Part shown: in pieces, positions 3,001 to 33,215 of the stretch
Layout: each line of letters begins with the position of its first letter
How positions within the stretch are numbered: the first letter of the stretch is position 1
Source: Prevotella sp.
GTDB taxonomy: Bacteria; Bacteroidota; Bacteroidia; Bacteroidales; Bacteroidaceae
Assembly: GCA_017554385.1 (NCBI GenBank)
Contig: JAFZIL010000049.1
Span: 1-33,215, forward strand
DNA: 33,215 nucleotides
Direction: 5' to 3'
Made by a program: the position numbers and the translations under genes
Notes under the pieces: generated by a model
The model's input: the letters and a program-made list of their open reading frames with translations, nothing else
The model's database searches: none
What the model was told of the DNA's origin: nothing

Positions 3001-5346
3001 ATAGCCACCAACGGCAAGTATGCCGGTGGACTCGTCGGCATCGTGCAGGGCTCGACTACCATCACCGACTGCCTCAGCAGCGTCACCATCAGCAGCTCCA
3101 CCAGTGGCGACGGCACCCACGGCGGCATTGTCGGCGTGACAGCTTCGAAAAGCGGCCTCGAGATCTACGGCTGCGTGTTCAACGGCAGCCTGCTTGGCGC
3201 GAATACCGAGTGCGTGGGCGGCTTCGTCGGATGGCGCCAAAGCGGGGCTAACATCTACAACTCGCTCTTCATCCCCACCGAGGTCACCGTCAAGAATACG
3301 AACAGTGCCACCTTCGCACGCAACTTGATTGATACCTACAACTGCTATTACACCTACCTGCTCAACGACGGCACGAACTACAAGCCCGTGTATGTCGGTG
3401 GCGACAAAACCCCGAACTTGTGGCGTAACGGCAAGGCTCCACGCACTGTCGAGGCAGGTGAGAATGTCACCATCACCGACATCGCGCTCATCGGCACCAC
3501 CACACCCTACGGTGTCGCCGGCATTACGGCCTACAGCGGTGGCGGCATTTCATACGGCGATATGCTCTACTACGGCAGCGGCGACCAGGTGAGCCTCACG
3601 CTCAGCCACCCTGCACCTACAGCTGGCTATACTTGCAACGGCTACACCGCCACCGCAGGCACCCTCGCAGGGAACGATGACGACGGCTACACCCTGACCA
3701 TGCCCGACGACGATGTGTCCATCAGCACCGACTTCAGCATCGATGACTGGGCAGTGGGGCATGCAGGAACAGAAGACGACCCCTACATGATTTATTATAA
3801 AGAGCAGCTCGACCTGCTGGCCAGCCGTGTGAACCAGGGCAATCGATATCGCTATGACGAGGATAATCCAGTAGGATACTACTTCAAGCTCGGTGCCGAC
3901 ATTGCATACGATCCTGACGAGCTGACCATCGACAACGACGGTGACGGCATAAACGACAGCAACTACACGCCCATCGGTGCATACGTCAATTATGCATGGC
4001 TCGACTTCGGAGGTACCTTCGACGGCGATGGCCACACCATCAGCGGCATCCGCGTATATATGACTGACGGTATCGGTCAATACCAGGGCCTCTTCGGCCA
4101 TGTTTATGGAGGTACCATAAAGAACGTCACCCTGGCCGATGCCCAGATCACAGGCCAGTACTATAACGGCGGTATCGCAGGTTACACCGACAATGAAAGC
4201 ACCATCACCAACTGCCGTGTAGTCAACGTAGCCATCCACGCCAATGACGAATATGCTGAAAACTTCGGTGGAATAACAGGTGTCAACCATGGCACATTGA
4301 GCAACAACCTCGTCATCGGTGCCACCATCCCGGCTGCTGCCGACAATAGCTGCGGTGCTATCTGTGGCCGTATCGAAGCCGAATACAACGGTTCCTTCCT
4401 CCAGCATAACTACTACACCGCCTGCACCGTGGCAGGTGTTGAGAACGCTGCTGGCGTGGGTTGCGGCATCTACGACATCAATAATGATAGCATCAGGATT
4501 GAGGACATCGACCACTACGATTTCTATTATGATGCCGACTATTACGACGCTGCCGTGCCTGCCCTGCGCAACAATGCTGCCAATGCTACCGCTATCGGTC
4601 TTTTCGCTACCCTGCCCGCCAATGTCGACTTCGGATGGGGCGAAGGCAAATACCCCGTGCAGCTCACTGGCCGCACGCTGTGGAAGGACGGCGACTGGAA
4701 CACGCTGTGCCTGCCGTTCTCACTCAGTGCCGAGCAGGTGGCGACAATGTTGGATAATCCCACTGCACTGATGACACTCAACGGTACGACATCAGACCTC
4801 ACAGACGGCACACTGACGCTGAACTTCACGGATGCGACATCGATTAGCGCGGGCGTACCTTATATTATCAAGTGGGACAGCGGCGACAACCTCGTGAGTC
4901 CCGTGTTTACTGGTGTGACCATCGACAAGACGATGCACGATGTGAAGACCAGCGACGGTAATATCACCTTCAAGGGCAGCTACGACTACCAGCAGTTCAC
5001 CACGGAGGACCAGAGCATCCTCTTCCTTGGTGCCGACAATACGCTGTACTGGCCACAGAACGGTGCCCGCATCGGTGCCTGCCGTGCCTACTTCCAAGTC
5101 TCTGACGATGTCACCGCGGGCGATCCGTCGAACCCCAACGCCATTCGCGCCTTCAACCTCAACTTCGATAGCAACGTGACGACGGGAATCGTTGAAATGA
5201 GAAATGAGGAAGGAGAAATGAGAAATGGAAATGAAGGAATGAGAAATGACGGCGCGTGGTACACCCTCGACGGACGGAAGCTCGACGGCCAACCTACTGT
5301 CAAGGGGTTGTATATTCACAATGGCAGAAAGATATTGATAAAATAA
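67..5346 (+). CDS. Large secreted surface protein with beta-helix, InlB-type and GLUG repeats
   Basis: A 1759-residue exported protein. A signal peptide ends near residue 32 (AWA). Residues about 34-300 and 441-720 are two divergent copies of one module, each opening with A(V)xYxDENG and containing repeated ITINGG strands typical of right-handed beta-helices. Between them (about 360-430) are two repeats with CxxC pairs (CPECGKYF, CKRCNKYF). Residues about 724-788 match an InlB B-repeat/Listeria-Bacteroides repeat (GYTFVGWAND...ITAKYRD). GLUG-like repeats (GGLVG, GGFVGW, GGIAGYT) occupy about 917-1058 and 1317-1445. A WNTLCLPFSL domain (about 1538-1695) is also found in the 406-residue protein downstream. 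The end (1730-1759) carries YTLDGRK...GLYIHNGRKILIK, resembling a Bacteroidetes C-terminal sorting signature. Just before it, eight heptamers are translated in frame. Adhesion or glycan binding is plausible; no enzyme motif was seen. Confidence 0.9.
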   Translation: MKAKATFSTAHGVRLVTTLLLMLLTASTAWAFKTAATAVSYIDENGNTQNCTNYTVITSSTGTTWSEGWYVVNSTVEIGSRVSVSGHVRLILVDGCSLSIGSGIEVNDPNSITIYGQSANSGRLNCGAPNYCAAIGGNKYQGNNDPSSRSYGDITINGGTIEVTGGYWAAGIGAGSAKDRDYRLGGTITINGGNITANGGRASAGIGGGYCSSTGTITINAGNINASAGVASDDLFATGIGGGIYNEWWLSQSNAGTVNINGGRITTTTYEYGMYGCRPGVGTGTSGKYITINLNWTRASDRYAFSVPRITSNEMMYDGCYGYKNYLKTFEKGWENNRQILVPHKGYTFHAKKDATCTENGYSRNCYQCPECGKYFTDNTVPTECDKSEVYLEPLGHDMEYTAAVPATFTSNGHIAYYHCKRCNKYFKDSAGRFEITLAETVTTAVTYLDENGVEQTLASGTSVTADNAVWSNGWYIVDHDVTFDARVSVNGTVNLLLLDGKTLTVKNGIEVKRWNTFRIYAQSTDENTMGKLVASLDEDDDDSEDCSTIGGSKSFHQKGTTTVNGIAGTIVINGGNLDVTSRGCYAIGDGEVEYEVNDDEREYFQTTTFNLTINGGIIYLGRGNYDGLYNGSIGSQADDATITINGGKITTSNGINCRYKGHLSINDTGRPLELRTSINAFHGGSITLSGQFMLNDGTGTEAVANHVDGWYYTTNFENKTIVNYRSVTLNDFEASATEKIPFGTAVDEPSRSSHPGYTFVGWANDNALYDFSAPVTADMTITAKYRDLTHFGYTSSYTPDGSENNPYIISTIDGWNAFCDALQDNFVWNRFIGQDVQMSNNIGSAQQPVIRMAGSTDHEFCGNFDGGSHTLTFTATAADNYCAPFRNVRGGSTADDAITISNLNVKTTITATDYRHTAGLIALQSGHVNVTDCNATVDISSTKGSNNTDLYPAGLVSQASSDNGGTLRIEHCTASGRIATNGKYAGGLVGIVQGSTTITDCLSSVTISSSTSGDGTHGGIVGVTASKSGLEIYGCVFNGSLLGANTECVGGFVGWRQSGANIYNSLFIPTEVTVKNTNSATFARNLIDTYNCYYTYLLNDGTNYKPVYVGGDKTPNLWRNGKAPRTVEAGENVTITDIALIGTTTPYGVAGITAYSGGGISYGDMLYYGSGDQVSLTLSHPAPTAGYTCNGYTATAGTLAGNDDDGYTLTMPDDDVSISTDFSIDDWAVGHAGTEDDPYMIYYKEQLDLLASRVNQGNRYRYDEDNPVGYYFKLGADIAYDPDELTIDNDGDGINDSNYTPIGAYVNYAWLDFGGTFDGDGHTISGIRVYMTDGIGQYQGLFGHVYGGTIKNVTLADAQITGQYYNGGIAGYTDNESTITNCRVVNVAIHANDEYAENFGGITGVNHGTLSNNLVIGATIPAAADNSCGAICGRIEAEYNGSFLQHNYYTACTVAGVENAAGVGCGIYDINNDSIRIEDIDHYDFYYDADYYDAAVPALRNNAANATAIGLFATLPANVDFGWGEGKYPVQLTGRTLWKDGDWNTLCLPFSLSAEQVATMLDNPTALMTLNGTTSDLTDGTLTLNFTDATSISAGVPYIIKWDSGDNLVSPVFTGVTIDKTMHDVKTSDGNITFKGSYDYQQFTTEDQSILFLGADNTLYWPQNGARIGACRAYFQVSDDVTAGDPSNPNAIRAFNLNFDSNVTTGIVEMRNEEGEMRNGNEGMRNDGAWYTLDGRKLDGQPTVKGLYIHNGRKILIK
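5194..5249 (+). repeat. Eight-copy heptamer tract (GAAATGA) inside the coding sequence
   Basis: Eight consecutive 7-bp units, mostly GAAATGA with variants GGAAGGA, GAAATGG, AAATGAA and GGAATGA, fill 56 bases exactly. They are translated as a low-complexity E/M/R/N-rich stretch between the body of the 1759-residue protein and its C-terminal signature. Because 7 is not a multiple of 3, gain or loss of one unit would shift the signature out of frame. Confidence 0.9.
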
Positions 5347-7565: not shown

Positions 7566-8336
7566 ATGTTTGAAACCGAATTATATCATACACTACTTAT
7601 CCTGGCTGGAATATCCAACCTGTCGATGGCAGCCTCTCTGCTCCACGGCAACCTGTCGTACGTCGACTATTCGGTCTACCGATGGGCACGCCGCTTGGTA
7701 GCTCTCTGCTTTACCATCTTCGCCATTGGCTTTTTCCTCCATGCCCATTTCGAGTGGCGCACGTCGTGGCCTGCCGCTGCCTCTGCGCTCTCGGTGAGCT
7801 ATTTCCATATCGGTGGCGTGCTCTTCGGTTGGAGCCACACCTCCCTGCTGCGTCCCGACTACCTGACGAAGAAGGTCATCGCGCGCGATCTTATTATATT
7901 AATTATAGGACTGATTAGCTATTGGACAGCGGTAGCCAATTTTTCACTTTTCGTTTTTCACTTTTCACTTTCAATTTTCTTCCTCCACGCCACCTTCATC
8001 GCCTACACCTTCTATCATACCTATCACGAGGTGAGGCGCGACATCCTGAGCATGCCTGCCGACAAAGGCTCTCGCCGGTGGTGGACGCCGGCAGCAAAGC
8101 GTACGGTGCTCAATGGCCACCACTCGTTTGTGATTTCCGGCCACCTCATCGTGCTCTTCGGCATTGGCAGCATCGTGGTCACCGCTGCCTTCCCCTCTCA
8201 GATAACCCCTTACACCGTGCTGCTTTGTATGGGCATCGCGGTCTATTGCTATATATTCTACGCCCTCTCCGAGTATGGCTATGTCATTGAGGCCGCCACG
8301 TATGCCACCGAGGACGCAGAGAGAATTGATAATTGA
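7566..8336 (+). CDS. Polytopic membrane protein resembling the sensor half of the divergent AraC-type regulator
   Basis: A 256-residue protein with about seven hydrophobic segments (around residues 5-27, 41-63, 72-92, 107-125, 126-150, 187-208, 214-236) and no DNA-binding domain. Spacing and local sequence around residues 38-95 (ARRLVALCFTIFAIGFFLHA...) recall residues 38-92 of the AraC-type protein encoded divergently (ARWLMAGATSLLFIQFLL...), suggesting a shared sensor fold. The ATG at 7566 was chosen over an upstream TTG at 7485 because the promoter box lies between them. Residues 122-135 are encoded by a repeat arm (7929-7970), giving an FSLF-FHFSL stretch inside a membrane segment. The stop codon lies in a heptamer tract (8324-8344). 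It may modulate the regulator or be a regulator that lost its output domain; both are inferences. Confidence 0.8.
   Translation: MFETELYHTLLILAGISNLSMAASLLHGNLSYVDYSVYRWARRLVALCFTIFAIGFFLHAHFEWRTSWPAAASALSVSYFHIGGVLFGWSHTSLLRPDYLTKKVIARDLIILIIGLISYWTAVANFSLFVFHFSLSIFFLHATFIAYTFYHTYHEVRRDILSMPADKGSRRWWTPAAKRTVLNGHHSFVISGHLIVLFGIGSIVVTAAFPSQITPYTVLLCMGIAVYCYIFYALSEYGYVIEAATYATEDAERIDN
7929..7970 (+). repeat. Repeat arm (GCGG core plus heptamers) embedded in frame
   Basis: GCGGTAGCCAATTT (7929-7942) is followed by four heptamers (TTCACTT, TTCGTTT, TTCACTT, TTCACTT). The core and heptamers match the right arm of the inverted-repeat element at 26453-26494. The reading frame stays open and the heptamers add Phe/Ser/Leu-rich residues within a predicted membrane segment. 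Confidence 0.75.
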
Positions 8337-8344
8337 TAATTGAG
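8324..8344 (+). repeat. Three-copy heptamer tract (AATTGAT) at a gene junction
   Basis: AATTGAT, AATTGAT and AATTGAG run in tandem. The TGA stop codon of the membrane protein (8334-8336) is made by the tract. The next gene starts 14 bases after it, so the tract forms the junction of two probably co-transcribed genes. Confidence 0.7.
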
Positions 8345-8358
8345 GAATATCGACATAT

Positions 8359-9579
8359 ATGAAACCATTAATCAACCATTCAACCTTCCGGCTGCTTCTG
8401 GCCTGCCTGTTCATCATGGCAGGCACGAAGCAGATGATCGCTTGGGATACTAAGCCCGGTGCCAATGGGAAGTACGACAAGTATTTCGACCGTCCGACCC
8501 ATTTCCCCGACTGGACGCAGCCCAGCGACTGGCCCAACGCCGAGTACTATCTGGTGTGTGCACGCTTTAGTGAAGACGGTCCGCAAATTGAGAACTACGA
8601 GGTGGCCGTCTACGACCAGAACGGCAAGCTGCGCCACTGTAACCGCTCCAGAGCGAAGGACAACCACCTCTGCACGCTCACCATCAAGGGCGAGGAGGGC
8701 GACCAGTTCCACTGCCAGATTATCTATGGTGACGACTTCGAGCACCCGATGATAGTCGACGCCGTGGAGACCTTCGGCTTCGGTACCAACGACATTGTGG
8801 GTTCAAAGACCGCACCGTACTGGCTTACCTTGCGTGAGCGCACCCTCCTTTCTGAGACATCGCCCGAGCCATTCGTCAGCGAGACGTGTGCCAGGGTCAC
8901 CGTGAAGCGTACCATTGCTCCTAACGAGTGGGGCACCATCTGTCTGCCCTTCGCCATGACTGCCGCTCAGGTGAAGACCGCATTCGGCGAGGACGTGGAG
9001 CTGGCCAACTTCAAAGGCTGCGTGGTAGGTTATGACGACGACGGACAGACCGTGAAGAGCATCAACGTGAGTTTTGCCGACACCACGGCTATGAAGGCCA
9101 ACCACCCTTATATTATAAAGGTACGCGAGCAGGTCAAAGAGTTCGAGGTCGACGGTGTGGACATTGTCGCCTTGGGCGAGAACGAGAAGGCGTCGGTGGA
9201 CTGCGACAAGAAAACCGTAACTGTGGGCAGTGATACGTATGTCAGCTACAACAGCTTCGTGGGTAACTACCAGAACGGTTTTATCGTTCCCGACCAGTCG
9301 CTGTTCCTCAGTGGCGGCAAGTTCTGGTACTCTACCGGCAAGACAAAGATGATGGCCTTCCGTGCCTACTTCGACTTCTACGACGTGCTGCCTTCGATGG
9401 AGGGAGCCGATTCCCGTATTACCATGTCCTTCGACAATGGTGCCCCCACCGCCGTTGAGCCTGTTTCGGTTCGGTCGCTGCAACCGGATCAGCTCTTTGA
9501 CCTTCAGGGCCGCCGGCTGACGAAAGCACAGTCTCCAGGCCTGTACATACAGAACGGCAGGAAGTTCTTTGTAAAATGA
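8359..9579 (+). CDS. Secreted two-domain protein with DLQGR...K C-terminal signature
   Basis: A 406-residue exported protein of unknown function. A signal peptide covers about residues 1-28. Residues about 12-157 are almost the same as the N-terminal part of the protein at 19560-20624 (for example DRPTHFPDWTQPSDWPNAEY and QNGKLRHC.RSRAKDNHLCT), and the DNA is also nearly the same. Residues about 190-350 form a domain opening with NEWGTICLPFAMT, related to the region WNTLCLPFSL in the 1759-residue protein. The last 28 residues (LFDLQGRR...GLYIQNGRKFFVK) match the C-terminal signature of the two large proteins in this window, suggesting the same export or surface-sorting route, possibly type IX. 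It follows the orphan sensor gene by 22 bases and is probably co-transcribed. Its stop codon lies in a heptamer tract. Confidence 0.85.
   Translation: MKPLINHSTFRLLLACLFIMAGTKQMIAWDTKPGANGKYDKYFDRPTHFPDWTQPSDWPNAEYYLVCARFSEDGPQIENYEVAVYDQNGKLRHCNRSRAKDNHLCTLTIKGEEGDQFHCQIIYGDDFEHPMIVDAVETFGFGTNDIVGSKTAPYWLTLRERTLLSETSPEPFVSETCARVTVKRTIAPNEWGTICLPFAMTAAQVKTAFGEDVELANFKGCVVGYDDDGQTVKSINVSFADTTAMKANHPYIIKVREQVKEFEVDGVDIVALGENEKASVDCDKKTVTVGSDTYVSYNSFVGNYQNGFIVPDQSLFLSGGKFWYSTGKTKMMAFRAYFDFYDVLPSMEGADSRITMSFDNGAPTAVEPVSVRSLQPDQLFDLQGRRLTKAQSPGLYIQNGRKFFVK
8392..8829 (+). repeat. Duplicated 0.43-kb segment, upstream copy
   Basis: This segment encodes the N-terminal module of the 406-residue protein. 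It recurs in the same orientation at 19596-20029 with long nucleotide-identical stretches and mostly third-position changes. The two copies flank the 9.6-kb giant gene as direct repeats. Confidence 0.85.
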
Positions 9580-9671
9580 AGAATGAAGAATGAAGAATTT
9601 GCTTCCGCGATGAAATAATGAAGAATGAAGAATTTGCTTCCGTGATGAAATAATGAAGAATTTACTTCCGC
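9576..9671 (+). repeat. Heptamer tract with three copies of the TTGCTTCCGC core
   Basis: Three ATGAAGA heptamers (9576-9596) supply the TGA stop of the 406-residue protein. The core GAATTTGCTTCCGC occurs at 9595-9608, then as GAATTTGCTTCCGT at 9630-9643 and GAATTTACTTCCGC at 9658-9671. The copies are 35 and 28 bases apart, both multiples of 7. Each core is followed by GATGAAA; after the third, this ATG is the start codon of the next gene, while the first two give ATG-AAA-TAA mini-frames. Confidence 0.8.
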
Positions 9672-9672
9672 G

Positions 9673-9885
9673 ATGAAAAAGAAAAACTACATACAACCGG
9701 ATGTCCTTGTGGTGCGCTGCCAACCCATGACCATCATCTGCGCCTCGGGCGTGGAATCGGACGAAAAGCAGATTGAATATGGAGGCGTTGACGAGGACGG
9801 TAACCTGACCCCAGGCACGCGCCGCTATAACGACTGCTGGCAAGAGGAGGACGAAGAGGAAGAGCGCGACGAATATGGCTGGTGA
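9673..9885 (+). CDS. Second small peptide, K-K-x-Y-x-x-P type, acidic C-terminus
   Basis: A 70-residue protein of unknown function. It begins MKKKNYIQPDVLVVRC, like the 60-residue peptide at 5782 (Lys-rich, Tyr, then Pro-acidic and a short beta-type V-V stretch). A hydrophobic/Cys segment follows (MTIICASG, about residues 19-26), and the tail is very acidic (EEDEEEERDE) ending in Trp. Three Cys are present. There is no clear signal peptide or lipobox. The start codon lies immediately after a TTCCGC repeat core, so the repeat itself supplies the translation start region. It sits 62 bases before the giant surface-protein gene and is probably co-transcribed with it. Two such peptides beside large surface proteins suggest a linked role, which the sequence does not reveal. 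Confidence 0.7.
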   Translation: MKKKNYIQPDVLVVRCQPMTIICASGVESDEKQIEYGGVDEDGNLTPGTRRYNDCWQEEDEEEERDEYGW

Positions 9886-22377: not shown

Positions 22378-22433
22378 CGTTATGACGTTATGACGTTATG
22401 ACGGTATTTCGTTATGACGTTATAACGAAATTA
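22378..22433. repeat. 8-bp tandem repeat (CGTTATGA) at the regulator-synthetase junction
   Basis: Seven consecutive 8-bp units: CGTTATGA three times, CGGTATTT, CGTTATGA, CGTTATAA, CGAAATTA. The last unit contains the stop codon of the XRE-cupin gene (22431-22433). The same unit reappears between argC and argD (30771-30825). Confidence 0.9.
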
Positions 22434-24374: not shown

Positions 24375-26000
24375 TTATTTCATGTAAGTGTACCTGTAGT
24401 CCGTCGGAGACACGAGCGTCTCCTTGATGACACGCGGGATAATCCAGCGGATGAGGTTGAACTCACCGCCTGCCTTGTCGTTGGTACCACTGGCACGGGC
24501 GCCTCCGAAGGGCTGCATACCCACGACGGCACCGGTGGGCTTGTCGTTGATGTAGAAGTTGCCGGCAGCATAGCACAGGCGGTCGGTCATCTTCTCCACA
24601 GCCATGCGGTCGCGTCCGAAGACGGCACCTGTCAGTCCGTAAGGTGAGGTTTCGTCGCACAGTTGCAACGTCTCGTCCACCTTGTCGTCGTCGTAGGGAT
24701 AGACGGTGATGATCGGGCCGAAGATCTCCTCCTCCATCGACTTGAAGTGCGGGTTGGTGGTCTCGATGACCGTAGGCTCCACGAACCAGCCTACGGACTT
24801 GTCGCACTTGCCGCCGATGACAATCTTAGCGTCGGCAGCTTCCTTGGCATAGTCGATGTACGACTTGCACTTGTCGAACGAGGCCTCGTCGATGACGGCG
24901 TTGACGAAGTTCATAGGTTCGCAGACATCGCCCATCTTGATCTCGGCACACATACGACGGATGTCCTCCAATACGTCGGGCCACAGGCTCTTGGGGATAT
25001 ACATGCGCGAGGCAGCCGAGCACTTCTGTCCCTGGAACTCGAAGGCTCCGCAGAAAGCAGCAGTGGCCACGGCCTTCTTATCAGCAGAAGGATGCACAAA
25101 GATGAAGTCCTTGCCACCTGTCTCGCCGACCAGTCGCGGATAGCTTACGTAGCGGTCGAGGTTCTTGCATGCCTGCTGCCAGAGACTCTTGAACGTGGCG
25201 GTGCTGCCCGTAAAGTGGATGCCAGCGAAATGCTTGCTCTGTGTGGCCACTTCACCGATGAGGGCACCACTGCCAGGCAGGAAGTTCACCACACCGTCGG
25301 GCAGTCCGGCCTCCTTATAGAGCTGCATGAGGTAGTAGTTCGAGAGCAGGGCTGTGGTCGAAGGCTTCCACAGCGCGACATTACCCATGAGCACAGGTGT
25401 CATGCAGAGGTTCGAAGCAATCGAGGTGAAGTTGAACGGTGTCACGGCGAGCACAAAGCCCTCCAACGGACGGTACTCCGTGTGGTTCAACTGCATGTTG
25501 CCGTCCTTAGGCTGCATGGCGTAGATCTTCGAGGCGTAGTGGACGTTGTAGCGGAAGAAGTCGATGGTCTCGCAAGCGCTGTCGATCTCGGCCTGGTAGA
25601 AGTTCTTGCTTTGGCCCAGCATCGTGGCGGCGTTCATGATGGGACGGTACTTCGTGGCAAGCAGCTCGGCCATCTTCATGACGATGGCGGCACGGGTTGT
25701 CCACGGCGTGCGGCTCCACTCCTGCCAGGCCTTCATGGCGGTCTCGATGGCCAACTCAATCTCGGCCTTTCCCACCTTGTGGTAGGTGGCCAGCACGTGC
25801 TGGTGGTCGTGTGGGCAGGTCACCGTGCCGGTGTTGCCGGTGCGAATCTCCTTGCCACCGATGATGATGGGAATGTCGACAACGATGCTCTTCTGGCGTT
25901 CCAGCTCTTTTTCAAGTGCAACACGCTCTGGCGAGCCTGCCAGATAGGCTTTCACCGGTTCGTTGGCCGGTGTGGGGAAGGTGATAATAGAATTATTCAT
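24375..26000 (-). CDS. pruA: Delta-1-pyrroline-5-carboxylate (L-glutamate semialdehyde) dehydrogenase
   Basis: A 541-residue aldehyde dehydrogenase of the ALDH4 type, oxidising glutamate semialdehyde/P5C to glutamate with NAD. Key features, numbered from the chosen start, are VTPFNFTSIASN (cofactor loop), the general base Glu293 in LVGETGGKDF, and the nucleophile Cys327 in GQKCSAASRMY. It is a single-domain enzyme without the proline dehydrogenase fusion seen in PutA. The frame extends upstream to 26075, but those 25 extra residues are translated heptamer repeat (FTFHYSLFTIHYY), so the ATG at 26000 is taken as the true start. Together with rocD it completes ornithine catabolism. The inverted-repeat element with the four-helix-bundle gene lies directly upstream, so expression of pruA and arcA depends on read-through of that element or a promoter within it. 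Confidence 0.93.
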   Translation of the reverse strand: MNNSIITFPTPANEPVKAYLAGSPERVALEKELERQKSIVVDIPIIIGGKEIRTGNTGTVTCPHDHQHVLATYHKVGKAEIELAIETAMKAWQEWSRTPWTTRAAIVMKMAELLATKYRPIMNAATMLGQSKNFYQAEIDSACETIDFFRYNVHYASKIYAMQPKDGNMQLNHTEYRPLEGFVLAVTPFNFTSIASNLCMTPVLMGNVALWKPSTTALLSNYYLMQLYKEAGLPDGVVNFLPGSGALIGEVATQSKHFAGIHFTGSTATFKSLWQQACKNLDRYVSYPRLVGETGGKDFIFVHPSADKKAVATAAFCGAFEFQGQKCSAASRMYIPKSLWPDVLEDIRRMCAEIKMGDVCEPMNFVNAVIDEASFDKCKSYIDYAKEAADAKIVIGGKCDKSVGWFVEPTVIETTNPHFKSMEEEIFGPIITVYPYDDDKVDETLQLCDETSPYGLTGAVFGRDRMAVEKMTDRLCYAAGNFYINDKPTGAVVGMQPFGGARASGTNDKAGGEFNLIRWIIPRVIKETLVSPTDYRYTYMK

Positions 26001-26013
26001 AATTTTAAAGTAA

Positions 26014-26494
26014 TAGTGAATAGTGAAAAGTGAATAGTGAAAAGTGAAAAATTTGCTTCCGCTCTCCCTGTTCACTTGTTTTCATTATGTTGTTTGGTTG
26101 TTTTAATTGATGAAATTAAAAGTGCAAGCAATTCTTGGCAATCCTTGCTCATGCTTTCGAATTCTTGTTCGTTCAAATACTCTGTATCCTCGAGGATGTT
26201 GAGCCAATAGAGAGTCTCATTGCATTCTTTCAAAGCAATAGACAATTTGTTGATGAAATCAGCAGGGCTTTGAGCGTAAGTGGCTTCGCTCACCAAAGCG
26301 CCAATAGCTGTGCCAGAGCGAAATAACTGATTAATCATACCGTATTCCTTTGGACTGCATTTGATGCCTTTTACAGTCTTGACGACTCTTACACCGAAAA
26401 GATAGCTCTTCCTTGTTAGCGGTGAACTGTTATATTGTAAATATGACATAGTGCGGTAGCAAATTATTCACTTTTCACTTTTCACTATTCACTT
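26014..26494. mobile_element. Inverted-repeat-bounded unit carrying only the four-helix-bundle gene
   Basis: The left arm (26014-26062) is five heptamers (TAGTGAA/AAGTGAA) followed by AAATTTGCTTCCGC. The right arm (26453-26494) is GCGGTAGCAAATTA followed by four heptamers (TTCACTT/TTCACTA). Over 42 bases the arms are complementary at 37 positions, with the unique core inward on both sides. The single gene between them nearly fills the interior. It sits inside the rocD-ctlX-pruA-arcA block and supplies the ctlX stop codon. There is no transposase and no obvious target-site duplication. Mobility is inferred from the inverted ends and from the related gene-less copy in argC. Confidence 0.5.
26072..26449 (-). 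CDS. Four-helix-bundle protein (S23/IVP family)
   Basis: A 125-residue, mostly helical protein matching the four helix bundle/23S intervening-sequence protein family by length and sequence (KGIKCSPKEYGMINQLFRSGTAIGALVSEA..., then SPADFINKLSIALKECNETLYWLNIL). Homologues are encoded inside intervening sequences of 23S rRNA genes in some bacteria, and the accessory protein Avd of diversity-generating retroelements has the same fold. The biochemical role is unknown. Here the gene interrupts an arginine-catabolic operon and is bounded on both sides by inverted repeat arms, the right one ending 3 bases before its start codon. It has no evident connection to arginine metabolism. Compared with its neighbours it is AT-rich, which fits a separate origin. 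Confidence 0.85.
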   Translation of the reverse strand: MSYLQYNSSPLTRKSYLFGVRVVKTVKGIKCSPKEYGMINQLFRSGTAIGALVSEATYAQSPADFINKLSIALKECNETLYWLNILEDTEYLNEQEFESMSKDCQELLALLISSIKTTKQHNENK

Positions 26495-29584: not shown

Positions 29585-29619
29585 AATTCTCAATTCTCAA
29601 TTGTCAATTCTCAATTGTT
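29585..29619. repeat. Five-copy heptamer tract (AATTCTC) between argD and proC
   Basis: AATTCTC, AATTCTC, AATTGTC, AATTCTC, AATTGTT fill the junction exactly. The tract begins directly at the proC start codon, and its last base is the first base of the argD stop codon as read on the plus strand (29619-29621). Confidence 0.85.
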
Positions 29620-30761: not shown

Positions 30762-30770
30762 ATTGTTATT

Positions 30771-30825
30771 CGTTATTACGTTATTTCGTTATCACGTTAT
30801 TACGCCTCTCGTTATGACGTTATGA
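30771..30825. repeat. 8-bp tandem repeat (CGTTATKA) between argC and argD
   Basis: CGTTATTA, CGTTATTT, CGTTATCA and CGTTATTA (30771-30802), a 7-base interruption, then CGTTATGA twice (30810-30825) and a degenerate end before the argC stop codon. The unit is the same as in the regulator-synthetase junction at 22378-22433, 8.4 kb away. Confidence 0.9.
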
Positions 30826-30837
30826 CGCTGTTATCAT

Positions 30838-31881
30838 TTAAAATGCGCTTGCCTTCAGCCGCAGTCCTGCGGTCTCGTCAATGCCGAACATAAGGTTCAT
30901 GTTCTGTACAGCTTGACCGACGGCACCTTTCAGCAGGTTGTCGATAGCAGAGGTGATGAGCAGTTTGTCGCCGTACTTCTCGCAATGGACAAGTGCCTTG
31001 TTGGTATTGACAACCTGTTTCAGGTCGATGGGGGCATCGCTGTAGTGGGTGAAGGCGGCGTCACGGTAGAAGTCCTTGTAAGCCTCGATGATATCTTCTA
31101 TTGGTGCTGGTGTCTTGACTACGGCAGTACAGAAGATGCCGCGGGCGAAGTCACCGCGATAGGGGATGAAGTCGATGTCTGCATCGAGGTAACCCTGTAT
31201 CTGCTTGAGGCTCTGGCGAATCTCGGCAATGTGCTGGTGCTGGAAGGGCTTGTAGATGCTCAGGTTGTTGTTACGCCAAGAGAAATGGGTGGTGGCGCCT
31301 GGCTTCTGACCAGCTCCTGTTGAACCTGTAATGGCATTAACAGCTACATCCTCTTTCAGTATATTCAAGTAGGCTGCTGGCAGCAAGGCTATCTGAATAC
31401 ACGTGGCGAAGCATCCTGGGTTGGCTACATGCTGAGCTTTCAGGATTTCAGCCTTGTTGATTTCTGGCAGACCGTAAACGAATTTATAGGGTAAAGTGAA
31501 GAGTGAACCATTTGCTTCCGCACCTCCTTCTCCGGTAGGAAATTTTTCACTATTCACTGTTACCTTTTCCCTTTTAATACGGAAATCTTGGGCGAGATCG
31601 ATGATTTTTACGTTCTCAGGGATGGTGTGCTCCTTGAGGAACTGTTCGCTTTTGCCGTGGCCAAAGCAAAAGAACACTACGTCGACTTCCTCAAAGGGCA
31701 TCTGATCAGTGAAACGTAAATCCGTCTCACCGATAAGTCCCTCGTGCACGTCGCTTACGAGATTGCCTGCGTTGCTCTCAGAGTTGGCAAACACAATCTC
31801 GGCCTCGGGATGGTTCAACAGCACACGGATGAGCTCGCCACCCGTATAGCCTGCCGCACCAAGAATACCTACTTTTATCAT
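30838..31881 (-). CDS. argC: N-acetyl-gamma-glutamyl-phosphate reductase with in-frame repeat insertion
   Basis: A 347-residue enzyme reducing N-acyl-glutamyl phosphate to the semialdehyde with NADPH. An N-terminal dinucleotide-binding motif (ILGAAGYTGGELIR) and the catalytic Cys157 in HVANPGCFATC identify it. Between IDLAQDFRIK (94-103) and FVYGLPEIN (134-142), where relatives have only a few residues, there is an extra stretch encoded by a 66-bp inverted-repeat element (residues about 108-129). The element is exactly 22 codons and keeps the frame. It lies on a loop linking the nucleotide-binding part to the catalytic part, so the enzyme may tolerate it, but this is inference. Just upstream of its start codon is another repeat core with seven heptamers. 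Confidence 0.92.
   Translation of the reverse strand: MIKVGILGAAGYTGGELIRVLLNHPEAEIVFANSESNAGNLVSDVHEGLIGETDLRFTDQMPFEEVDVVFFCFGHGKSEQFLKEHTIPENVKIIDLAQDFRIKREKVTVNSEKFPTGEGGAEANGSLFTLPYKFVYGLPEINKAEILKAQHVANPGCFATCIQIALLPAAYLNILKEDVAVNAITGSTGAGQKPGATTHFSWRNNNLSIYKPFQHQHIAEIRQSLKQIQGYLDADIDFIPYRGDFARGIFCTAVVKTPAPIEDIIEAYKDFYRDAAFTHYSDAPIDLKQVVNTNKALVHCEKYGDKLLITSAIDNLLKGAVGQAVQNMNLMFGIDETAGLRLKASAF
31494..31559. repeat. 66-bp gene-less inverted-repeat element inside argC
   Basis: Left arm: AAGTGAA, GAGTGAA and CCATTTGCTTCCGC (31494-31521). Ten-base centre: ACCTCCTTCT. Right arm: CCGGTAGGAAATTT, TTCACTA and TTCACTG (31532-31559). The arms are inverted copies with the core inward, as in the 0.48-kb unit at 26014-26494 but with no gene. 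The length, 66 bp, is divisible by three, so argC stays in frame. It looks like a miniature derivative of the larger unit. Confidence 0.75.
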
Positions 31882-31882
31882 T

Positions 31883-31945
31883 GTAGTAGCAAATTATTCA
31901 CTTTTCACTATTCACTTTTCACTATTCACTTTTCACTATTCACTT
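31883..31945. repeat. Repeat core and seven heptamers between argG and argC
   Basis: GTAGTAGCAAATTA (31883-31896) starts one base outside the argC start codon and is followed by exactly seven heptamers alternating TTCACTT and TTCACTA (31897-31945). The next base begins the argG stop codon (31946-31948 on the plus strand). It is a single right-type arm, filling the junction completely. Confidence 0.9.
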
Positions 31946-33139
31946 TTACCTTTCATTAGGGTGGATGCCGTAATATACTCTCAGCGGAGTGCTGCTGACC
32001 TTGATGAAGCCTTTGGCCTCGTCGGCAGTCCAACCGGTCTGGGTCTCGCCATACTCTCCGAGCTTCGACTTCGTAAGGTCGTTGGCAGAGTCGATGCCAA
32101 CGGTCTCGAAACCGTAGGGGCGCAGCTTCAGGATGGCGGTGCCGGTGACATTGCGCTGGCTGCTGGTCAGCATGGCCTCGATGTCAGGCATCACAGGCTC
32201 TAAGTACTGGCTCTCGTGCAGGAACATGCCGTACCAGTTGGCCACCTGGTCCTTCCAGTATTGCTGCCATTTCGACAGCGTCGACTTCTCCAACAGACGG
32301 TGGGCCTCGATGATGAGCTTCGGTGCAGCGGCCTCGAAGCCTACACGACCCTTGATGCCGATGATGGTGTCGCCCACGTTGGCGTCGCGACCGATGGCAT
32401 ACGATGCGCCAATCTCCTCAATCTTCTGGATGGCTTTTATGCGGTCGTCGAACTTCTCACCGTTCACACCGACAATCTCGCCCTTGTCGAACTCAATCTT
32501 CAGCAGCTGTTCAGGTTCCTTAGCTGTGACGTGTTTCAGATATGCCTCCTCGGGCAGACCCTGAGTCGGGTCGAGTAGCTCACCGCCACAGATGCTGGTT
32601 CCCCAGATGCCGACGTTATACGAGTACTTTAGCTTGGTGAAGTCGGCAAAGAATCCGTGTTCGTTCAGGAAGTCCACCTCCTCCTTGCGGGTGAGTTTCT
32701 TGTCGCGAGTCAGCGTGATAATCTCCACGCCGGGAGCCATGACGAGGAACGTCATGTCGAAGCGTATCTGGTCGTTGCCGGCACCTGTAGAACCGTGGGC
32801 AATGGCATCGGCACCTATCTCTTTTGCGTAGCGCGCGATGGCGATGGCCTGGAAAATGCGCTCAGACGAAACCGAAATGGGGTAGCAGTTGTTGCGCAGC
32901 ACGTTGCCAAAGATCATGTACTTCAGCGACTTTGCGTAGTACTCCTGCGTCACGTCGAGAGTGACATACTCCTTAGCGCCTAACTTGTAGGCGTTCTCCT
33001 CGTTCTTCTTTAACTGCTCGGCACTGAAGCCTCCGGTGTTGGCGCAGGCGGCATAAACCTCATATCCGTCCTGTGCCAGTTTCATTACGGTGTAACTGGT
33101 GTCAAGCCCACCAGAAAAGGCTACTACTACTTTCTTCAT
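31946..33139 (-). CDS. argG: Argininosuccinate synthase
   Basis: A 397-residue enzyme joining citrulline and aspartate with ATP to argininosuccinate, the penultimate step of arginine synthesis. The ATP-binding loop AFSGGLDTS (residues 7-15) and the GSTGAGNDQIRFD segment (116-128) are intact, and length is normal for the family. The ATG at 33139 is preferred over a GTG five codons upstream, which lies at the edge of the heptamer tract. It is the first gene of the group seen here; the promoter and any further genes lie beyond the right edge. It shares citrulline with ArcA and CtlX, which work in the opposite direction, so the two sets need opposed regulation. Confidence 0.95.
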   Translation of the reverse strand: MKKVVVAFSGGLDTSYTVMKLAQDGYEVYAACANTGGFSAEQLKKNEENAYKLGAKEYVTLDVTQEYYAKSLKYMIFGNVLRNNCYPISVSSERIFQAIAIARYAKEIGADAIAHGSTGAGNDQIRFDMTFLVMAPGVEIITLTRDKKLTRKEEVDFLNEHGFFADFTKLKYSYNVGIWGTSICGGELLDPTQGLPEEAYLKHVTAKEPEQLLKIEFDKGEIVGVNGEKFDDRIKAIQKIEEIGASYAIGRDANVGDTIIGIKGRVGFEAAAPKLIIEAHRLLEKSTLSKWQQYWKDQVANWYGMFLHESQYLEPVMPDIEAMLTSSQRNVTGTAILKLRPYGFETVGIDSANDLTKSKLGEYGETQTGWTADEAKGFIKVSSTPLRVYYGIHPNER

Positions 33140-33151
33140 ATTTATTCTATA

Positions 33152-33215
33152 CACTATTCACTATACACTATTCACTATTCACTATACACTATACACTATT
33201 CACTATTCACTATAC
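33152..33215. repeat. Heptamer tract (CACTATT/CACTATA) upstream of argG, running off the window
   Basis: Nine complete heptamers (33152-33214) mix CACTATT and CACTATA, starting 12 bases before the argG start codon, and continue to the window edge. No -7 box is seen before the edge, so the argG promoter or a preceding gene lies further right. Confidence 0.9.

What the first reader, a model, noticed from the sequence alone, without database searches (positions are those of the whole stretch)
26014..26494. A 0.48-kb inverted-repeat unit carrying a lone four-helix-bundle gene inside an arginine-catabolic operon
The two arms (five and four heptamers plus a 14-nt core AAATTTGCTTCCGC / GCGGTAGCAAATTA) are inverted copies matching at 37 of 42 positions, and bracket one gene of the S23/IVP four-helix-bundle family. 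The gene is unrelated to arginine metabolism and the unit forms the ctlX stop codon. S23-type genes are known inside 23S rRNA intervening sequences and the fold occurs in retroelement accessory proteins; a role as cargo of a repeat-ended unit in a metabolic operon would be new to me. No transposase or clear target duplication was seen, so mobilisation in trans or by recombination would be needed.
Basis: partly seen in the sequence, partly recalled or inferred. Interest (0 to 1): 0.82.

Follow-up and report, generated by a model that had tools for sequence, protein, structure and literature searches.

The report
Heptamer-armed four-helix-bundle insertion unit
A half-kilobase insert in an arginine-breakdown operon carries one small gene between two mirror-image arrays of seven-base repeats, and many relatives of this gene in other bacteria show the same layout, which suggests a widespread minimal mobile element related to the inserts known from ribosomal RNA genes.

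Summary
A four-helix-bundle (S23/IVP, PF05635) gene at 26072-26449(-) lies between inverted heptamer arrays plus core (26022-26065 / 26450-26493, 89% complementary over 44 nt), exactly between ctlX and pruA. Of 27 ctlX loci only this one has the gene beside ctlX, and eight relatives have a compact 17-52 bp ctlX-pruA spacer, so it is an insertion.

It is not a one-off. PF05635 genes of Bacteroidota, Gammaproteobacteria and other phyla often have inverted, period-7 (or 8) flanks (104 of 207 pass a strict test); control genes do not. Arm sequence follows the gene's lineage more than the genome, even between different genomes and unrelated sites, which points to gene plus arms as one unit. Gene-less palindromes and half-arms of the same repeat are dispersed in this genome, some in frame inside proteins (argC, with empty sites in relatives). 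The gene is under purifying selection.

Best reading: a minimal mobile element like the 23S rRNA intervening sequence, but outside rRNA. Movement, catalysis and arm binding are inferred. At one site the gene stayed put while both arms changed together, and in Coxiella the homologous ORF is thought not to be expressed; both speak against an active role there.

The parts
26015..26065 (+). left arm: five AGTGAAW heptamers followed by core AATTTGCTTCCGC; on the 3' side of the 4HB gene, upstream of pruA
26050..26062 (+). core AATTTGCTTCCGC (inner end of the left arm)
   Evidence: one of 50 exact cores in the genome
26072..26449 (-). four-helix-bundle (S23 / 23S_rRNA_IVP, PF05635, TIGR02436) gene, 125 aa
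   Evidence: AF2 model pLDDT 94; matches 2rld, 2gsc and, more weakly, Avd 4dwl
26453..26465 (-). core AATTTGCTACCGC (inner end of the right arm), three bases upstream of the 4HB start codon
26450..26494 (-). right arm: core plus four heptamers, inverted relative to the left arm; supplies the ctlX stop codon
26489..27427 (-). ctlX (citrulline utilization hydrolase), upstream gene of the operon
24375..26000 (-). pruA (L-glutamate gamma-semialdehyde dehydrogenase), downstream gene; start taken as ATG at 26000 from the conserved N-terminus in relatives
31482..31560 (+). gene-less palindromic copy of the repeat (heptamers, core, 10-nt loop, inverted core, heptamers), in frame inside argC
9575..9678 (+). 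direct half-arm copies: AATGAAG heptamers plus core, three times
7925..7985 (-). half-arm copy (core with mismatches plus heptamers) inside an open frame

Best explanation
The segment is an insertion, in this lineage, of a minimal IVS-like genetic element. It consists of one gene for a four-helix-bundle protein of the S23/IVP family, enclosed by lineage-specific inverted arrays of heptamers with a short core on their inner side. Shown: the anatomy; the absence of the gene beside ctlX in relatives; the same anatomy around many members of the gene family in several phyla; co-diversification of arms and protein; purifying selection on the protein; dispersed gene-less palindromes and half-arms of the same repeat. 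Inferred: the oligomeric 4HB protein recognises its own arms, which fold into a long stem in the host transcript (or in single-stranded DNA), and this lets the unit, and in trans the gene-less palindromes, be copied to new places by host or other machinery. Once in place it rides in the host operon in the same direction. The stem is a likely RNase III substrate, which would free the 4HB message and part ctlX from pruA, as reported for 23S rRNA intervening sequences. The catalytic step is unknown: in Pfam and NCBIfam the protein matches only S23/four-helix-bundle models, two PRK12275-type hypothetical-protein models below cut-off and, below cut-off, Hen1_N.
For: Insertion: of 398 genus genomes 27, this one included, have ctlX. 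Only this one has a 4HB gene in its ctlX locus, eight have a 17-52 bp ctlX-pruA spacer, and two (L064, L143) a gene-less palindrome with another heptamer. Generality: inverted flank scores exceed the cross-locus 99th percentile in 23 of 54 genus genes (33 of 54 exceed the maximum of 125 control ORFs), 6 of 30 in the phylum, 47 of 74 named loci and 28 of 49 in Gammaproteobacteria; direct orientation 0, 3, 9 and 6. Lag-7 autocorrelation of the flanks outside the genus is .37-.43 against about .26 in controls. Co-diversification: rank correlation of protein and arm similarity between different genomes at unrelated sites is .42 in the genus (0 of 999 permutations) and .22 in 150 other loci (0 of 499); with left arms against reverse-complemented right arms only, which share no coding sequence.31 and .19 (0 of 499 each). 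Selection: 56 pairs, median dN/dS .21. RNA stem: MFE -135.6, z -5.5. Orientation: 46 of 54, 26 of 30 and 55 of 72 co-directional with both neighbours; baselines 66, 78 and 61%. Core pairs closer than 700 nt in this genome: 9 convergent, 0 divergent. Fold: S23 proteins, more weakly DGR Avd.
Against: No target duplication, transposase or catalytic motif was found. At the frd site 17 4HB genes form nearly one clade (2 changes against 14.7 shuffled) while their arms differ by subclade: there the gene stayed and only the arms changed. 103 of 207 genes do not pass the strict inverted-arm threshold, and at the looser limit of 31 three of 54 genus genes also pass in direct orientation. Two identical 4HB genes in one genome lie in a duplicated segment of 1070 bp, longer than the unit. 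Identical units at separate sites of one genome were not sought systematically; the near-identical ones seen lie in one cluster (L073). In Coxiella the S23p ORF is reported as probably not expressed and decaying, and the authors think the RNA matters more than the protein (PMC4990558, passages). Outside the genus one arm pattern was hardly dispersed in the genome.
Confidence: 0.6

Rival explanations
1. Passive palindromes. Heptamer arrays and their mirror images arise and are kept alike by replication slippage and hairpin template switching, and spread by recombination; 4HB genes merely sit in, or are trapped by, such palindromes and play no part in their movement.
For: Both arms change together at the fixed frd site. 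Most cores in the genome are half-arms or gene-less. The ctlX-pruA junction and the same argC spot hold different arrays in different genomes. Heptamer arrays are described in Xanthomonas, Nostoc and Beggiatoaceae without a 4HB link in the passages I read (PMC4692102, PMC4679880).
Against: Arm type follows 4HB lineage across unrelated sites and genomes, and distant 4HB lineages within one genome have background arm similarity (17 pairs, median 15). Control genes lack such flanks. The protein is under purifying selection.
Confidence: 0.2
2. REPIN/MITE-like DNA element moved in trans by a transposase elsewhere in the genome (a RAYT or other IS200-like enzyme), with the 4HB gene as passenger.
For: Dispersed inverted pairs with lineage-specific ends look like REPINs (recalled; PMC3116915 seen in a search listing only). 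One 4HB pair lies next to a reading frame whose start resembles a RAYT (by eye).
Against: No transposase gene is in the unit. Ends are heptamer arrays, not REP hairpins (recalled). Ends covary with the 4HB protein itself. A transposase elsewhere was not sought.
Confidence: 0.1
3. Domesticated operon spacer: the unit is old and vertically kept, and the stem serves mRNA processing between metabolic genes.
For: The frd site is long occupied; genes are mostly co-directional with the host operon; strong stem.
Against: Beside ctlX the gene is unique among 27 genomes, so it is not kept there. Gene-less palindromes inside proteins cannot be spacers.
Confidence: 0.1

Closest known systems
23S rRNA intervening sequences with an S23p ORF (Coxiella; PMC4990558, passages read)
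   Same: An S23/IVP gene between ends that pair into a stem cut by RNase III. In Coxiella two or three tandem heptamers, by strain, stand just upstream of the S23p start. A mobile origin was proposed (Burgin 1990; Ralph and McClelland 1993, as cited in that paper).
   Different: Here the unit lies between protein genes; none of 60 related loci scanned with Rfam holds LSU rRNA. Arms are inverted arrays that diversify with the protein. The Coxiella ORF is decaying and probably not expressed; the genes here are under purifying selection.
REPIN / RAYT systems (PMC3116915, listing only; features recalled)
   Same: Dispersed inverted pairs with lineage-specific ends and a gene flanked by its own ends.
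   Different: The gene is a four-helix-bundle protein, not a transposase; ends are period-7 arrays.
Heptamer arrays of Xanthomonas (GGGAATC; 70 convergent pairs in Xcc) and Nostoc (PMC4692102, passages and section 10 read)
   Same: Same kind of dispersed convergent heptamer arrays; Xcc also encodes the S23 protein of 2gsc.
   Different: In what I read the paper does not mention S23 or four-helix-bundle genes (the terms 'helix bundle' and '23S' have no occurrence); the link was not tested here for Xanthomonas.
Rickettsia palindromic elements (recalled)
   Same: Palindromic repeats inserted in frame in protein genes.
   Different: Other sequence, other taxon; no gene-bearing version that I know of.
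Avd of diversity-generating retroelements (4dwl, 8ub7)
   Same: Same fold (TM about .7-.86, E .013 and .066).
   Different: Sequence identity 12-14%; a reverse transcriptase partner was not sought.

Membership tests
S23/IVP four-helix-bundle protein family | PF05635 / TIGR02436 above the curated cut-off | tested here: met
   86.3 bits against 33.8; 97.8 against 24
S23/IVP four-helix-bundle protein family | four-helix bundle like 2gsc and 2rld | tested here: met
23S rRNA intervening sequence | lies inside a 23S rRNA gene | tested here: not met
   between ctlX and pruA; no LSU in 60 related loci (20 named from outside Bacteroidota, 40 gammaproteobacterial)
23S rRNA intervening sequence | ends pair into a stem around the ORF | tested here: met
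   (predicted)
23S rRNA intervening sequence | excised by RNase III | not testable with these tools
   -
MITE / insertion sequence | terminal inverted repeats | tested here: met
MITE / insertion sequence | target-site duplication | tested here: inconclusive
   none seen against the empty sites, but those genomes are only 57-72% identical in CtlX
MITE / insertion sequence | transposase in the unit | tested here: not met
   the only ORF of 80 aa or more inside the unit is PF05635; a parent element elsewhere was not sought
REPIN / RAYT | RAYT (Y1 transposase) gene flanked by the repeats | tested here: not met
   the flanked gene is PF05635
REPIN / RAYT | dispersed inverted pairs with lineage-specific ends | tested here: met
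Rickettsia palindromic element | in-frame insertion in protein-coding genes | tested here: met
   argC; 12 of 40 core loci lie inside a long frame, some perhaps antisense
Diversity-generating retroelement (Avd) | reverse transcriptase and template/variable repeats | not tested
   -

The most novel reading that the evidence does not exclude
S23/IVP four-helix-bundle genes are in general the sole gene of a widespread family of tiny bacterial mobile elements whose ends are inverted heptamer arrays recognised by the cognate protein. The 23S rRNA intervening sequences, the dispersed palindromic heptamer arrays of many genomes and the in-frame palindromic inserts in proteins are all members or by-products of this family, which uses a mobility mechanism without a transposase of its own, perhaps through an RNA stem.
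Probability: 0.4. Interest if true: 0.92.

Novelty: new variant of a known kind. Interest (0 to 1): 0.78.

Why it matters
S23/IVP proteins are described as having no known function (PMC4990558, passages), and for heptamer arrays in bacterial genomes no mechanism was evident to those who described them (PMC4679880, abstract). Tying the two together gives both a direct test: does a four-helix-bundle protein bind, and move, its own inverted heptamers? It would also explain in-frame palindromic inserts in housekeeping proteins, and make the rRNA intervening sequence one setting of a general element.

Tried and rejected
Ten paper searches were made. Those that bear on S23/four-helix-bundle genes with heptamers, inverted repeats or mobility listed no paper that links such genes to inverted heptamer arrays outside rRNA, as far as the listings and the passages I read show. 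The library holds open-licence papers only, so this is no proof of absence.

I thought that G1025, with eleven PF05635 matches, might be a set of 23S inserts. Rfam found no rRNA in the three stretches fetched and the matches are weak, so I left it out. Three of its four rows have no arms; the fourth, a weak match of 17 bits, does (score 51). All four are inside the counts: without them 27 of 45 pass instead of 28 of 49.

The Porphyromonas BrickBuilt MITE (PMC4596501, passages read) has IS5-like ends and a 23-nt unit, so it is unrelated. A k-mer search for one shared core across the genus gave no single motif; cores are lineage-specific, such as AGACAATAGTC and GACAAATGCTTT in the GGAGTTA lineage. 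Outside Bacteroidota one arm pattern, sought in eight genomes, gave 10 hits in the Thiohalocapsa genome, 4 at one place in a Clostridia genome, 1 in a third and none in five, so genome-wide dispersal is not shown outside the genus.

How the genus set was made: 30 loci of the best matches, the two genes of the own genome, and 20 regions that I picked from the list, clusters included. Rows dropped: 59 genes found, 54 scored (two duplicate loci, three short flanks); (five short flanks, one with N), three, two and one without a neighbour. L223 and L259 appear to be the same locus and are counted in two sets; L259 was removed for but not. Group labels are mine, from record titles. dN/dS: 40 of the 56 pairs were printed; high dS values are uncertain.

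Full report
What is there. The + strand sequence at 26015-26065 reads as five AGTGAAW heptamers and the core AATTTGCTTCCGC; at 26450-26494 the mirror image stands with four heptamers and core AATTTGCTACCGC. Between them, on the minus strand, is one 125-aa gene of PF05635 / TIGR02436. The operon runs ctlX, 4HB, pruA on the minus strand. The TGA in the first heptamer ends ctlX, and the 4HB start codon follows the core after three bases. As RNA the unit is predicted to fold with the arms as one long stem (MFE -135.6 kcal/mol, z -5.5, none of 100 shuffles as low).

It is an insertion. Among 398 genomes of the genus 27, the window's own included, have ctlX. I read up to 480 nt downstream of ctlX in all 27 (250 nt where no pruA start was found) and searched all 27 loci, up to 1.5 kb on each side, for 4HB frames: only the window genome has one. 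Eight have ctlX and pruA 17-52 bp apart (L065, L066, L140, L142, L148, L153, L158, L159). Two (L064, L143) have a gene-less palindrome there with another repeat, AGTTAAAGGAGTTAAGCCAAATG. Six have one-sided arrays (L069, L141, L144, L151, L152, L155). Ten have other spacers or no pruA start found. CtlX identity to these relatives is 57-72%, so exact boundaries and target duplications cannot be read.

The repeat is dispersed. The genome holds 50 exact cores AATTTGCTWCCGC and none of the reversed control. All 50 sites were fetched; 49 have heptamer motifs within 21 nt upstream. Counting cores with mismatches as well (60 in all), nine convergent pairs and no divergent pair lie within 700 nt. One of the nine joins the argC core to a core farther off and overlaps the argC palindrome, which leaves eight separate pairs: seven with loops of 10-64 nt and no gene, and the 4HB unit with 390 nt. 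Most other cores are half-arms. Twelve of 40 core loci lie within a long frame, where the insert reads as recurrent peptides such as KSEKFATA or ANSSLFT; some of these frames may be antisense. For argC the empty form (DFRIKGNHDYVYGLPE or nearly so) is seen in 8 of 11 genomes. The window genome has the palindrome in frame, L161 has a different array (CACCCCT) at the same spot, and L162 a short insert. Repeat types are genome-specific: AGTGAARAGTGAA occurs 231 times in this genome and 330 in G034 but 0 in G026, G086, G009 and G008; its reversed control is not clean (51 in this genome, 0-15 elsewhere), because the pattern is low in complexity. AGTTGACRAGTTGAC occurs 184 times in G086 and 46 in G044, 0 in five of 14 (control 0 in all 14). 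AATTGATAATTGAYAATTGA occurs 24 times in G109, 12 in G044 and 4 here (control 1 in total). In G044 six gene-less close pairs can be read from the list; all six are convergent.

The architecture is general but not universal. PF05635 occurs in 131 of 150 genus genomes, 232 of 296 of the phylum and 77 of 369 Gammaproteobacteria. For each gene tested I aligned the 250-nt left flank with the reverse complement of the right flank. Genus: median 39 against 18 for cross-locus pairs, direct pairs and 125 control ORFs; 23 of 54 exceed the cross-locus 99th percentile of 45.4 (high because loci share repeats), direct 0 of 54; 33 of 54 exceed the control maximum of 31, direct 3 of 54. The window's own gene is one of the 54. 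Phylum: 6 of 30, direct 3 of 30, controls 0 of 19. Named loci: Bacteroidota 26 of 45 (direct 7), others 21 of 29 (direct 2). Gammaproteobacteria: 28 of 49 (direct 6). In sum 104 of 207 pass. Periodicity is a measure that needs no arm match: lag-7 identity is .365/.366 (phylum).382/.376 and .403/.413 (named) and .425/.422 (Gammaproteobacteria) against .26 in controls. In the genus both 7 and 8 are raised.32-.37 against .26-.27. One search had no control windows of its own; its other lags serve.

Arms belong to the gene lineage. In the genus, for 1360 pairs of loci from different genomes with no homologous neighbours, protein similarity and arm similarity correlate at .42 (0 of 999 permutations reach it; maximum .233). 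Arm scores of 24 or more occur in 59% of 150 pairs with protein similarity .5-.7 and in at most 1% of pairs in each bin below .35. In 150 loci of other taxa the correlation is .22 (0 of 499). Flanks could share coding sequence, so I repeated this with left arms against reverse-complemented right arms only.31 (56 loci) and .19 (149 loci), 0 of 499 each; outside the genus high arm scores are seen mainly in few close pairs (104 of 10617 have similarity .6 or more). Seventeen same-genome pairs of distant lineages have a median of 15, the background. So the arm type is a property of the 4HB lineage more than of the genome. Cores follow too: AGACAATAGTC, GGACATTAGTC or GACAAATGCTTT stand on the inner side of arms in the GGAGTTA lineage.

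Against easy mobility. Seventeen 4HB genes marked by frd-like neighbours (short peptide motifs, fuzzy; one neighbour confirmed as fumarate reductase/succinate dehydrogenase flavoprotein) form nearly one clade (2 changes against 14.7 in shuffles), while their arms are TTTAGTCG, AGTTGAC, GAGTTTAT or GGTTATA by subclade. There the gene is old and both arms were rewritten together. Other shared sites, read by eye and named for one locus each, are etfA-acyl-CoA dehydrogenase and pta-ackA. Two identical genes in G117 lie in a 1070-bp duplication longer than the unit. The tree warns that the window gene is a long branch, so I draw nothing from its place.

The protein is real and kept. Among 56 pairs with dS .05-2 the median dN/dS is .21 (maximum .45), and .04-.15 for the printed pairs with at least 75% identity. 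AF2 gives pLDDT 94. Foldseek's best matches are 2rld (50-52% identical), 2gsc and, more weakly, Avd of the Bordetella phage retroelement (4dwl, E .013) and its ribonucleoprotein (8ub7, E .066). Avd works as an oligomer with a reverse transcriptase and RNA (recalled), which makes RNA or DNA binding plausible but does not show it.

Orientation. Both neighbours run the same way as the 4HB gene in 46 of 54, 26 of 30 and 55 of 72 loci, against 66, 78 and 61% for other triples in the same loci (neighbours from a greedy ORF choice, not a gene finder). This fits a unit that lives on host transcripts but is only moderately above baseline.

Known things. The Coxiella 23S intervening sequence has two or three tandem heptamers, by strain, just upstream of its S23p ORF, and is cut out by RNase III; authors cited there proposed transposition or mobility. 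[quoted passage not shown] Xanthomonas has 186 GGGAATC arrays in Xcc, with 70 convergent pairs (PMC4692102, passages and section 10), and Beggiatoaceae, Cyanobacteria and five Bacteroidetes have TAACTGA arrays (PMC4679880, abstract, passages and section 12). None of the passages I read connects arrays with S23 genes outside rRNA. None of 60 loci scanned with Rfam has LSU rRNA; the window and the Bacteroidota loci were not scanned.

Verdict. The anatomy, the insertion, the breadth and the arm-gene covariation are shown here. That the 4HB protein recognises its arms and that the unit moves are the simplest inferences. The route and the enzyme are unknown. I file it as a new variant of the S23 intervening-sequence kind, not as a member, because the defining rRNA location is not met.

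Noticed in passing
window 31482-31560: Palindromic heptamer element in frame inside argC; the same spot in another genome (L161) holds a different heptamer array, while eight of eleven genomes are empty.
   Followed up: yes
window 5194-5249, 8324-8343, 22378-22427, 29585-29616, 30765-30828, 31895-31955, 33147-33215: Other 7-8 nt tandem arrays in the window.
   Followed up: partly
L279, L285, L288, L294, L296, L297, L298: In seven of the 40 gammaproteobacterial loci scanned a tRNA gene lies about 24-53 nt downstream of the 4HB frame on the same strand, one with an RtT RNA match: a second link to stable-RNA operons.
   Followed up: partly
L064 and L143, ctlX-pruA junction: Gene-less palindrome with another heptamer at the very junction where the window has the 4HB unit; one-sided arrays there in six further genomes: a hot spot or turnover of one old insertion.
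   Followed up: partly
L070, L071 (G117): Two identical 4HB genes in 1070-bp duplicated segments, preceded by a frame whose start looks like a RAYT transposase (by eye).
   Followed up: no
L073, L074, L075, L076: Clusters of two or three 4HB genes within one fetched stretch; in L076 three distant lineages stand side by side with different arms.
   Followed up: partly
G1025 (L289-L291): A 1.5-Mb genome with eleven weak PF05635 matches, several of identical score; three of four rows tested lack arms, and no rRNA was found in the three stretches fetched.
   Followed up: partly
L002, G000:C30:5678-5995: Second 4HB gene of this genome, next to prfB, with inverted arrays of another heptamer (AATGAGA).
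   Followed up: yes
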